This document shows, piece after piece, positions 43,053 to 46,259 of a DNA stretch of 64,000 nt (position 1 is the first letter of the stretch; each line of letters opens with the position of its first letter). This DNA comes from Caldifarciminota bacterium. Its GTDB lineage: Bacteria > Hydrothermota > Tepidihabitantia > Tepidihabitantales > Tepidihabitantaceae. Below the pieces are notes generated by a model that saw only the letters and a program-made list of their open reading frames with translations, was not told the origin of the DNA and did no database searches. The stretch is taken from positions 1-64,000 of the forward strand of contig JAOABP010000008.1 of NCBI GenBank assembly GCA_026418295.1. Direction: 5' to 3'. Both the position numbers and the translations under genes were made by a program.

Positions 43053-45578
43053 TTACAATTCCTGAAACCGCAGAATCGGCACCCGGACCGGATTGATATT
43101 TATCAGATCACTCTTGAACCTATCCTTGAGCTCCTGCTTCTTCCCGGCGTTCCAGCCGGAAACCCGGGAAAAGTATCCGGTCACGCGCGTGATGTGATCT
43201 ACTTCGGCTGAATGGCAGTAGGGACAGGTGGAATTAAGACCCCGGCTCGTCCGGTGACACCGGGCACAGGTTGTGAACTCGGGTGAAAAGGCAATCTGGG
43301 CATTCCGGGTCCGGTGATAGGTCTTGAGCACGAAATTGGCAATCGCCTCCTTCGGTGGCCGGGAATCTGCCAGCCAGACATGAGTCAGCGCGCCCGCCTC
43401 AATCATATCGTGAAACTTGCCTTCAAGGTAAACCCGTTCAATCGGATCGATCGCCGCTCCGATGTTCAGATAGGTGGAGTTCGTATAGTAAACCGCTCCG
43501 GACTGAAGGTCTCCCTTGACTACCTGCTGTGCCTGCTCCGGATAGAGCTCCAGATCCAGCTTTGCCAGCCGGAACGCTGTTGACTCAGCCGGCGTCTGCT
43601 CGATAACCAGTCGCATTTTGTGTTCCGCTGCCAAGCGCCGGCACTCCAGATTGAGGAACGCCATCACCTTCAAACCGAACCTGAACGCCTCCTCGCTTTC
43701 ATGGAGCTCCTTGCCCAAGTGATACTGCACCATCTCATTCAAACCCAAAACGCCGACAAGATAGGTCACCCGGTGCATCCGCAGATAGGGTTCGCCATCC
43801 GCATCCATGGTCAGCAGCGCAAGCGGTCCTTCTGACTTCAGTGCCAGAAGCTTTTCAATGAAAGTCCGCTTCTCCTCGTGCGCCCGGGCAACCATCTCCA
43901 TCCGCTCCCGCAGAAGTGAAAACAGCACCTCATCATCATGATTGGCAAGAAAAGCCACCCGGGGCAGATTGATCGTCACATTCTGCAGCGCACAGTAGCG
44001 CATCTTCCAGGGAGTTCTGGCATCATTCATATCATGCTCATCCAGCTTGAAACTGAGCCGGCAGCACTCACTGATCTTGGCAGTTTTGCCCCGGTCAAAG
44101 ACAAAATAGGTATTACCCTTCTCGGCAGCGACATCGGCGATGTGATTGAGAAAATCCTGATAGCCAGGGGTCTTAAAGAAGTTCTCGGTGATGTGCACGA
44201 GCGGTTTGGGGAAGAAAAACGGCCGACCGGAGCCGTCGCCGTCCCGGTAGACATCAAAGATCGCCCAGACGAACCGCTGTGCCTCGTTCAGATAATCACC
44301 ATATTTCTTGCCGGTATACTCACCACCAGGGCCGATTGCCGGCACCTCGGCAAAATGCGCCGGCATCTCCCAGTAAAGATTAATGTCGGAAAAGATCGCC
44401 TGTCCACCCCGGGCGACATTCTGCTGTGAATACTCAAAAACCAGCATCTGCGCCAGCTGGTGAATATCCCTGTCGCTCATCCCGACCAGAAATGGTGCAA
44501 AAAATATGTTAACCGCATCCCAGCCGATTGCCCCGGCAAAGTGTCCCTGCAGCGCCGCAGAAAACTTGACCATATGTGCCAGCAGTGTCTCCGGATGGCG
44601 TGCCGGCTTTGCCATTGATAACGCATTCGGCAGATTGAGTCCGAACTTCTTCACATACTCCAGCGACTGCCCGGAGCAATAAGGTCGATTGATAAAACCA
44701 AGATCATGCAGATGGATATCACCACGGGTGTGAGCGTCGGCAATGTCGGCATCAAATACCGAACTCAGGGCAAACTGTTTCAATGTCCACTCGGCAAGGG
44801 TCATATTCGTTGCCTCGGGATTGTGCGGGGTATTTGCATTCTCCCGGTTCTTGTAGAGAATCAGGTTCTCCACATCAGCAATCGGTACCCCCAGTCGGGC
44901 ATGGCGGCGTCGCGCCTCCTCCAGCCCCCGCTCCACCAGTTTGGCGTTCACCAGCTCCCGCACCAAGCTTGAAGTTACCCGCCGGACATTGGCATTAACA
45001 ATCGTCTCCTCAACCTCACGGGCAATCTCCTCGGCAATTTCCGGTTCCAGCCCGGCCTCACGCACCAGCGCCCGGCTGATCCGGGAGCGGTCCCACTGCC
45101 GGATCGTATCATCGGACGAACGGACGAACAGGGCAAATTCGGTCGTATCCCGCTTGCCAAAAAGCATGGGCTTAACCCGCACCGCCTCCAGTCGCCTTGC
45201 CCGCGCCCGCTCCTCCCGTTTCAGAATATACGCTTTGGCAGTCTGAGCATGACCATATTCCACCAGTACCTTTTCCACCGCATCACCAATCTCCTCAACC
45301 GTCGGAATGTGAGGACCGCGCTGGGCATAAAGATACTCTACCACCCGTTCCGCCAGCCAGCGCGCCCGATTATAATCCTCGCCTCCAACCGAACGGGCGG
45401 CATTGAAGATCGACCCGGCAAGTTTGTCAATGTCAAAATCAACCAGCTCGCCGGAACGCTTCTGGACCTTGCGAAAATACCATTTCCTGCCGGTCTCTCC
45501 CTCAGACGGCTTCCCCCCCGCTGCCGGCAGCCGTGAATGCGGGAACTTGTACTCCTGATGATTATTCTCCTCTGACAC
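43053..45578 (-). CDS. nrdD: Anaerobic (class III) ribonucleoside-triphosphate reductase
   Basis: An 841-residue glycyl-radical enzyme that reduces NTPs to dNTPs without oxygen. Start GTG at 45578 after GGAAGGAGGCAAGAG. Domains: N-terminal ATP-cone (about 33-125; VQKRSGELVDFDIDKL), then the NrdD barrel from about 250 (YKNRENANTPHNPEATN, HLHDLGFINRPYCSG) with active-site cysteines including ISECCRLSF, a zinc ribbon CARCHRT...CPYCHS (about 768-790), and the radical loop VSGWNAGKK with Gly at about residue 808. Regulated with nrdR, whose gene overlaps it by 17 nt. The activase nrdG is not in the window. Points to an anaerobic lifestyle. Confidence 0.95.
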   Translation of the reverse strand: MSEENNHQEYKFPHSRLPAAGGKPSEGETGRKWYFRKVQKRSGELVDFDIDKLAGSIFNAARSVGGEDYNRARWLAERVVEYLYAQRGPHIPTVEEIGDAVEKVLVEYGHAQTAKAYILKREERARARRLEAVRVKPMLFGKRDTTEFALFVRSSDDTIRQWDRSRISRALVREAGLEPEIAEEIAREVEETIVNANVRRVTSSLVRELVNAKLVERGLEEARRRHARLGVPIADVENLILYKNRENANTPHNPEATNMTLAEWTLKQFALSSVFDADIADAHTRGDIHLHDLGFINRPYCSGQSLEYVKKFGLNLPNALSMAKPARHPETLLAHMVKFSAALQGHFAGAIGWDAVNIFFAPFLVGMSDRDIHQLAQMLVFEYSQQNVARGGQAIFSDINLYWEMPAHFAEVPAIGPGGEYTGKKYGDYLNEAQRFVWAIFDVYRDGDGSGRPFFFPKPLVHITENFFKTPGYQDFLNHIADVAAEKGNTYFVFDRGKTAKISECCRLSFKLDEHDMNDARTPWKMRYCALQNVTINLPRVAFLANHDDEVLFSLLRERMEMVARAHEEKRTFIEKLLALKSEGPLALLTMDADGEPYLRMHRVTYLVGVLGLNEMVQYHLGKELHESEEAFRFGLKVMAFLNLECRRLAAEHKMRLVIEQTPAESTAFRLAKLDLELYPEQAQQVVKGDLQSGAVYYTNSTYLNIGAAIDPIERVYLEGKFHDMIEAGALTHVWLADSRPPKEAIANFVLKTYHRTRNAQIAFSPEFTTCARCHRTSRGLNSTCPYCHSAEVDHITRVTGYFSRVSGWNAGKKQELKDRFKSDLININPVRVPILRFQEL

Positions 45579-46035
45579 CTCTTGCCTCCTTCCTGATTTT
45601 CCTCAGTTCTTCCACAAACTGTTCCGGACTGGTAAACTGCCGGTAGACCGAAGCAAACCGGACATAGGCTACCGGGTCAATTCCAATCAACTGCTCAAGC
45701 ACCAGCTCACCGATCTCAGCCGAACTCACCTCAACTCTACCCTCCTCCTCCAGCCGGCGTTCCAACGCATCAACCAACCGTTCGATTTCGTTTCTGCCTA
45801 CCGGCCGCTTCCGACAGGCAAGCACAATCCCGTTAACCACCTTCTGCCGGTCATAAGGCTCGTGCCTCCCATCCCGCTTGATCACCATCAACGGCATTCT
45901 CTCCACATACTCATATGTCGTAAACCGCCTGCCACACTTCAAACACTCCCTTCTGCGCCGGATCGCACTTCCATCCTGAACCGGCCTGGAATCCAAAACC
46001 TTATCCTCTTCGCTTGAGCAGTAAGGACACTTCAT
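45562..46035 (-). CDS. nrdR: Transcriptional repressor NrdR
   Basis: A 157-residue repressor of ribonucleotide reductase genes that senses dATP/ATP. Start at the ATG at 46035, giving the standard MKCPYCSSEEDKVLDSR; the frame extending to 46077 would run through the promoter. Zinc ribbon CPYC...CLKCGRRF (1-36), then an ATP-cone (about 49-139) with PLMVIKRDGRHEPYDRQK. The gene overlaps nrdD, so repressor and target are made together. Confidence 0.96.
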   Translation of the reverse strand: MKCPYCSSEEDKVLDSRPVQDGSAIRRRRECLKCGRRFTTYEYVERMPLMVIKRDGRHEPYDRQKVVNGIVLACRKRPVGRNEIERLVDALERRLEEEGRVEVSSAEIGELVLEQLIGIDPVAYVRFASVYRQFTSPEQFVEELRKIRKEARGVRGE

Positions 46036-46048
46036 ATAGATCAATAAT

Positions 46049-46077
46049 ATGTTACACCACAATATATAGCGTGTCAA
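46049..46077 (-). promoter_or_regulatory. Leaderless promoter of nrdR-nrdD
   Basis: Minus strand: TTGACA (46077-46072), 17-bp spacer, TAACAT (46054-46049), 13 bases to the ATG. No Shine-Dalgarno before nrdR. Confidence 0.7.
46057..46072 (-). promoter_or_regulatory. NrdR-box-like operator in the nrdR promoter spacer
   Basis: ACGCTATATATTGTGG on the minus strand agrees with the known NrdR box consensus (acaCWAwATaTtGtgT) at nearly all positions. It fills the spacer between -35 and -10, so bound NrdR would block RNA polymerase and repress its own operon. Usually NrdR sites come in pairs; a second good box was not found nearby. Confidence 0.6.
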
Positions 46078-46259
46078 TTATAATAAATAATCAGTTCCGA
46101 TTCTGTAACTTATTGAAAAAAAATCATTTTTATTAATATTGCCGAATACTCCGGCAGAAAGATAAATCACAGGACTATCAAGATGGATTTTATACAAATT
46201 TATAGATATTATTTGTTATCCACAGGTTTATCCACATCTTTTCAACATTAATTCAACTT
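46078..46259. other. AT-rich island with two DnaA boxes (candidate origin or regulatory site)
   Basis: This 182-bp gene-free stretch is far richer in A+T than anything else in the window (for example runs such as AAAAAAAATC and TTTTATTAATATT). Two perfect DnaA boxes TTATCCACA lie in tandem at 46216-46224 and 46228-46236, three bases apart. It lies between the thiL 3' end and the nrdR promoter. It could be an origin with a DNA-unwinding element, or a DnaA-binding control region of nrdR-nrdD. Confidence 0.55.

What the first reader, a model, noticed from the sequence alone, without database searches (positions are those of the whole stretch)
46078..46259. AT-rich island with tandem perfect DnaA boxes: candidate oriC
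In a GC-rich window this 182-bp gap is strikingly AT-rich and holds two perfect TTATCCACA boxes three bases apart. Gene direction also switches from minus to plus nearby (47.2-47.3 kb). It could be the chromosomal origin, or DnaA control of nrdR-nrdD like the DnaA boxes of E. coli nrdAB. dnaA and dnaN are not adjacent, and gyrB lies about 17 kb away.
Basis: partly seen in the sequence, partly recalled or inferred. Interest (0 to 1): 0.6.

Follow-up and report, generated by a model that had tools for sequence, protein, structure and literature searches.

The report
Replication-initiator sites before ribonucleotide reductase genes
The two DnaA boxes are real, but they are not the chromosome's replication origin: they are a family-wide DnaA binding array in front of nrdR-nrdD, the genome's only detected ribonucleotide reductase genes, and probably tie DNA-precursor supply to replication control, as DnaA is thought to do in E. 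coli.

Summary
46216-46236 carries two perfect TTATCCACA boxes 3 bp apart, plus a weaker third (46239-46247), in the most AT-rich stretch of the window. The headline reading (oriC) does not hold. In four genomes of this family (own genome, G001, G003, G009) GC skew turns from minus to plus at dnaA, elsewhere in the genome, and does not change at nrdR. The array lies between thiL and nrdR-nrdD in all 17 family genomes where the region is held (7 genera), always in the same orientation, its middle box 139-161 bp upstream of the -35 of a promoter with tandem NrdR-box-like sites. The middle box is the most conserved 9-column stretch of the intergenic alignment. Three genomes that lost nrdR in place keep the boxes, so they belong to the nrdD promoter rather than to nrdR. 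In the own genome NrdD is the only RNR found, and only two perfect tandem pairs exist: this one and one just before dnaA. E. coli ChIP-seq shows DnaA on double boxes with 2-3 bp gaps upstream of nrdA and nrdD. Best reading: a DnaA-controlled RNR promoter, absent from sister families. DnaA binding and the direction of control are inferred, not shown.

The parts
46216..46224 (+). DnaA box, TTATCCACA, perfect (box nearest the nrdR promoter)
46228..46236 (+). DnaA box, TTATCCACA, perfect; middle box, the most conserved 9-column stretch of the intergenic region across the family (17.0 of 18 bits)
46239..46247 (+). third, degenerate DnaA box TTTTCAACA, 2 bp gap; TTATCAACA in genus g2 and in G012
46072..46077 (-). 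-35 element TTGACA of the nrdR-nrdD promoter
   Evidence: conserved as TTGAC[A/T] in all 17 family genomes
46049..46054 (-). -10 element TAACAT, 17 bp spacer
46057..46072 (-). NrdR-box-like site 1 (ACGCTATATATTGTGG), between -35 and -10
   Evidence: 14 of 16 to the consensus used
46027..46042 (-). NrdR-box-like site 2 (GATCTATATGAAGTGT), overlaps the nrdR start codon, 30 bp from site 1 (14 bp spacer)
   Evidence: spacers of 14-17 bp are accepted by NrdRs tested in PMC12051234
46140..46156 (.). inverted repeat TGCCGAATACTCCGGCA between the DnaA array and the promoter; conserved in g1/g2 only, role unknown; no T-run, so no intrinsic terminator
45562..46035 (-). nrdR, transcriptional repressor of ribonucleotide reductase genes (157 aa)
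   Evidence: TIGR00244; start by homology
43053..45578 (-). nrdD, class III (anaerobic) ribonucleoside-triphosphate reductase (841 aa); only RNR found in the genome
   Evidence: TIGR02487
46260..47222 (-). thiL, thiamine-phosphate kinase; upstream neighbour on the same strand
   Evidence: TIGR01379

Best explanation
The array at 46216-46247 is a regulatory DnaA binding site of the nrdR-nrdD promoter, not an origin. DnaA binds the tandem boxes cooperatively (the 2-3 bp gap is that of the functional double boxes of E. coli) about 140-160 bp upstream of the -35. It acts on the promoter, probably through the same face of the helix, to raise or lower transcription of the class III ribonucleotide reductase in step with DnaA-ATP level or replication. 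NrdR (dATP/ATP sensing) acts separately at the core promoter. Shown here: the boxes, their conservation, their link to nrdD rather than nrdR, and the absence of an origin. Inferred: DnaA binding, control of transcription, and its direction.
For: (1) Family-wide: the box array sits between thiL and nrdR or nrdD in 17 of 17 family genomes where the region is held, 7 genera, same orientation. (2) The middle box TGTGGATAA is the most conserved 9-column window of the intergenic alignment, 17.0 of 18 bits against a spacer mean of 0.47 bit per column, above the nrdR start region (16.1) and the -35 (12.1). (3) nrdR was lost in place in G006, G008 and G012 (remnants readable in G012), yet array and promoter remain in front of nrdD. 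(4) In a scan of 8 family genomes for double boxes with up to 3 mismatches, the only sites recurring across genera lie before dnaA and before nrdR/nrdD. (5) NrdD is the only RNR found in G000, G001 and G002. (6) E. coli: ChIP-seq finds DnaA at double boxes with 2-3 bp gaps upstream of nrdA and nrdD, and changing gap or box disrupts binding (PMC11317965); the perfect boxes upstream of E. coli nrdD have the same orientation relative to the gene. (7) Middle-box to -35 distances fall in classes 139-141, 150-153 and 158-161 bp, near whole helical turns; the tree implies at least three length changes.
Against: No binding or expression data exist for this lineage. The boxes lie further upstream than is usual for a direct activator or repressor. 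thiL-nrdR/nrdD adjacency is kept throughout the family, so no case was found where the boxes moved with nrdD away from thiL. The helical-phasing test is post hoc and weak when shared descent is allowed for (p 0.0045 if genera are independent, 0.06 on three length classes).
Confidence: 0.75

Rival explanations
1. Chromosomal origin oriC: the AT-rich gap is the unwinding element and the boxes load DnaA for initiation.
For: Perfect tandem boxes beside AT-rich DNA.
Against: GC skew keeps essentially one sign around nrdR in G000 (whole 93.5 kb contig), G001 (100 kb, one small exception) and G009 (200 kb), and over the 40 kb examined in G003. It switches from minus to plus at dnaA in all four, for genes of both strands alike in most bins. 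AT-richness is not shared by genus g4. dnaA has its own box pair.
Confidence: 0.03
2. Roadblock terminator: DnaA bound just after the thiL stop stops RNA polymerase reading from thiL into nrdR-nrdD, as reported for E. coli asnC.
For: Boxes lie just after (or overlapping) the thiL stop, always in one orientation relative to transcription; no intrinsic terminator was found. DnaA roadblocks are known (PMC11317965 citing Schaefer and Messer 1988).
Against: Does not by itself explain the near-helical spacing to the -35. Boxes are not found right after thiL in order-level relatives, where nrdR is not its neighbour.
Confidence: 0.12
3. A DnaA titration or nucleotide-exchange locus (like datA, DARS1/2 or the Bacillus DnaA-box clusters) that happens to lie in the thiL-nrdR gap.
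For: Tandem high-affinity boxes in an intergenic region, conserved across a family; E. coli DARS1, DARS2 and datA also carry double boxes.
Against: Only three boxes, all in one direction; a titration site need not keep a fixed distance class to one promoter nor sit at the RNR operon. Conserved IHF/Fis-like partner sites were not tested.
Confidence: 0.08
4. Chance or phylogenetic inertia of a non-functional AT-rich spacer.
For: The conserved gene pair would keep the spacer together.
Against: The rest of the spacer has diverged (0.47 bit per column) while the middle box has not (17 of 18 bits); about 0.001 tandem pairs expected by chance in the genome.
Confidence: 0.02

Closest known systems
E. 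coli nrdDG promoter (class III RNR) with a DnaA-bound double box (PMC11317965)
   Same: Same target enzyme class; tandem box pair with a 2-3 bp gap; TGTGGATAA orientation toward the gene.
   Different: In E. coli one box of the pair is degenerate and the pair lies at about -36 to the start codon, with another perfect box at -112; here the array is about 180-210 bp upstream of the start codon and the first gene is nrdR.
E. coli nrdAB promoter (class Ia RNR) regulated by DnaA-ATP/ADP (PMC8203912)
   Same: Three DnaA boxes upstream of an RNR operon; RNR supply linked to DnaA state.
   Different: Different RNR class; Fis and IciA sites also act there, not tested here; binding and direction of control not known here.
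NrdR-box promoters of RNR operons
   Same: Tandem NrdR-box-like sites overlapping -35/-10 and the start, 14 bp spacer.
   Different: The distal DnaA array is an addition, found in none of the 80 named nrdR loci examined.
dnaA upstream region of the same family
   Same: Tandem boxes, 2-3 bp gap, same orientation toward the gene.
   Different: Close to the dnaA start and at the skew minimum, so probably autoregulation and/or origin.

Membership tests
Chromosomal origin (oriC) | GC-skew minimum at the site | tested here: not met
   No switch at nrdR in G000, G001, G003, G009; the switch is at dnaA in all four
Chromosomal origin (oriC) | Cluster of DnaA boxes | tested here: met
   Two perfect and one degenerate box
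Chromosomal origin (oriC) | AT-rich unwinding element conserved with the boxes | tested here: not met
   AT-rich in g1/g2 but not in g4, by reading the alignment
Chromosomal origin (oriC) | DnaA-trio repeats beside the boxes | not tested
   No formal scan; skew already excludes an origin here
DnaA-regulated RNR promoter (E. coli nrdAB/nrdD type) | Double DnaA box with 2-3 bp gap | tested here: met
   3 bp gap here, 2 bp in g2; rule from PMC11317965
DnaA-regulated RNR promoter (E. coli nrdAB/nrdD type) | Located upstream of an RNR operon promoter and conserved there | tested here: met
   17 of 17 family genomes
DnaA-regulated RNR promoter (E. coli nrdAB/nrdD type) | DnaA binds the site in vivo | not testable with these tools
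   Needs ChIP-seq or footprinting
DnaA-regulated RNR promoter (E. coli nrdAB/nrdD type) | Expression changes with DnaA level or nucleotide state | not testable with these tools
   Needs reporter or transcript data
NrdR regulon promoter | Two NrdR boxes in helical register (14-17 bp spacer) at an RNR promoter | tested here: met
   Tandem score 25 of 32, shuffled 95% level 20; consensus recalled from memory, spacer rule from PMC12051234
DARS/datA-type DnaA control locus | Characteristic box arrangement with IHF/Fis sites, acting on DnaA nucleotide state | tested here: inconclusive
   All boxes tandem and few; IHF/Fis sites not tested

The most novel reading that the evidence does not exclude
In this uncultured family DnaA has become a principal transcriptional governor of the only ribonucleotide reductase. 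The link was acquired separately from E. coli, its binding array is held in helical register with the promoter, and it survives, and so may replace, loss of the near-universal repressor NrdR.
Probability: 0.3. Interest if true: 0.6.

Novelty: new member of a known kind. Interest (0 to 1): 0.4.

Why it matters
DnaA control of ribonucleotide reductase has been shown in E. coli and only proposed in Bacillus subtilis and Caulobacter. A deeply conserved DnaA array before the sole RNR of a distant lineage, missing from its sister families and kept after NrdR was lost, is comparative evidence that coupling dNTP supply to the replication initiator recurs in bacteria. It also names the two sites (dnaA and nrdR/nrdD) to test. 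It corrects a false origin call.

Tried and rejected
oriC at the site: rejected by skew in four genomes. G004 (single 3.3 Mb contig) was sampled for skew but shows no usable profile and no dnaA was found in it. Double boxes upstream of nrdR in 80 named GTDB loci: none, 0.1 expected by chance. Double boxes upstream of nrdR in order/class relatives: none (the start of L154 could not be placed). Class II-type (PF02867) RNR genes of G003 and G009 have no DnaA box array in the upstream DNA held (only a single TTATCCCCA at the far end of L338). An intrinsic terminator after thiL was not found. NrdR-box decay after nrdR loss was checked as a contrast: clear only in G006 (tandem score 14), not in G008 or G012 (19, 21). 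G013 could not be judged: its contig ends before the nrdD upstream region.

Full report
Observation. Two perfect DnaA boxes lie at 46216-46224 and 46228-46236, same strand, with a 3 bp gap. The gap region has 25.8% GC against 56.9% for the window, and the window's lowest-GC 182-bp stretches all lie there. Across the own genome (1.797 Mb, 16 contigs) there are 13 perfect boxes, against 9 for the reversed pattern, and exactly two tandem pairs: this one and one immediately upstream of dnaA on another contig. Random placement predicts about 0.001 such pairs. The genes are thiL, nrdR and nrdD, all on the minus strand. nrdR starts at 46035 by homology, so the intergenic region is 46036-46259. A third, weaker box (TTTTCAACA, 46239-46247) makes a triple array.

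Not the origin. In the own genome all ten bins of contig C15 (93.5 kb, which holds the window) have negative GC skew, while on C10 the skew passes from negative to positive between about 193 and 198 kb, where dnaA lies (197-198 kb). The same holds in G001 (dnaA at 49 kb of C2; nrdR contig positive nearly throughout), G009 (dnaA at 164 kb of C2, sharp switch; 200 kb around nrdR all positive) and G003 (dnaA at 179 kb of C2; nrdR region all negative). Third-codon-position skew has the same sign in genes of both strands in most bins, so this is not a gene-orientation effect.

What it is. The array was looked for upstream of nrdR in relatives. In all 14 family genomes with nrdR there is an array of two or three boxes between thiL and nrdR, in the same orientation; it is weakest in G007 and G010. 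Sister families of the order, class relatives and 80 named nrdR loci from other phyla do not have it. Three family genomes (G006, G008, G012) have lost nrdR but keep thiL and nrdD as neighbours. In G012 nrdR remnants can still be read. All three keep the array and the promoter. The array therefore follows nrdD, not nrdR. In an alignment of the 17 intergenic regions the middle box is the most conserved 9-column stretch, at 17.0 of 18 bits, with spacer columns averaging 0.47 bit. A scan of 8 family genomes for double boxes with up to 3 mismatches gives only two places that recur across genera, upstream of dnaA and upstream of nrdR/nrdD. NrdD is the only ribonucleotide reductase found in the own genome. 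Genus g2 also has a PF02867 reductase gene, and no box array was found upstream of it.

Anatomy of the promoter. TTGACA (46077-46072), a 17 bp spacer and TAACAT (46054-46049) form the core. NrdR-box-like sites lie at 46057-46072 and 46027-46042, 30 bp apart, i.e. a 14 bp spacer, inside the 14-17 bp range that NrdRs bind (PMC12051234). The distance from the middle box to the -35 falls in three classes across the family: 139-141, 150-153 and 158-161 bp. The NrdD tree groups g1 with g2, g4 alone, and g3, g5, g6 and g7 together, so at least three length changes occurred, each near one or two helical turns. Treating genera as independent gives p = 0.0045, and treating only the three classes as independent gives p = 0.06. 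This was noticed after the fact and is suggestive only.

Mechanism. E. coli ChIP-seq shows that DnaA binds mainly to pairs of boxes with 2 or 3 bp between them, including pairs upstream of nrdA and nrdD (PMC11317965). DnaA-ATP/ADP and DnaA level control nrdAB in E. coli, and similar control has been proposed in B. subtilis and Caulobacter (PMC8203912). NrdD abundance also changed in E. coli strains with altered DnaA control loci (PMC12371093). The window's pair meets the spacing rule with two perfect boxes, and the genome's DnaA is a full-length family member (TIGR00362). The best-supported mechanism is that DnaA binds the array and modulates the nrdR-nrdD promoter, so that dNTP production tracks replication control. 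Binding, effect and direction (activation or repression) are inference. The main rival is a DnaA roadblock that ends thiL transcription, for which position and orientation also fit; a titration or DARS-like locus is less likely.

Novelty. DnaA-controlled RNR promoters, including a DnaA-bound class III promoter, are known from E. coli. This is a new member of that kind, in a lineage whose sister families lack it, probably a separate acquisition (inference). The lineage was not named by any tool used here.

Noticed in passing
L040 about 7.7-8.0 kb (G014:C75:100749-100916); L038 about 7 kb (G016:C5:32943-33109): Genus g4 genomes carry another dense DnaA-box cluster (five perfect boxes in 170 bp, both directions, in G014) about 40 kb from dnaA; a type I restriction methylase-like gene lies nearby. 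Displaced origin or island replicon is undecided; skew there is weak.
   Followed up: partly
window 46078-46112 (minus strand) and the same place in relatives: A second conserved block just upstream of the -35 (TTAC-GAAT, then GGGATG in most genera; about 11 bits per 9 columns), possibly another regulator's site.
   Followed up: no
window 46140-46156: Inverted repeat TGCCGAATACTCCGGCA between array and promoter, seen in g1/g2; no T-run after it.
   Followed up: no
L249, after the promoter (G012:C202 about 13.3-13.6 kb): nrdR decaying in place: the start region and a C-terminal fragment (FASVYRQFGNAEQF) remain between an intact promoter and nrdD.
   Followed up: partly
L003/L001 upstream of dnaA: A tandem DnaA-box pair directly before dnaA in the own genome and, perfect or degenerate, in most family genomes; probable autoregulation and/or origin.
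   Followed up: partly
L340 (E. coli nrdD upstream): E. coli nrdD has two perfect TGTGGATAA boxes in its direction, at -112 and -35 relative to the start codon.
   Followed up: yes
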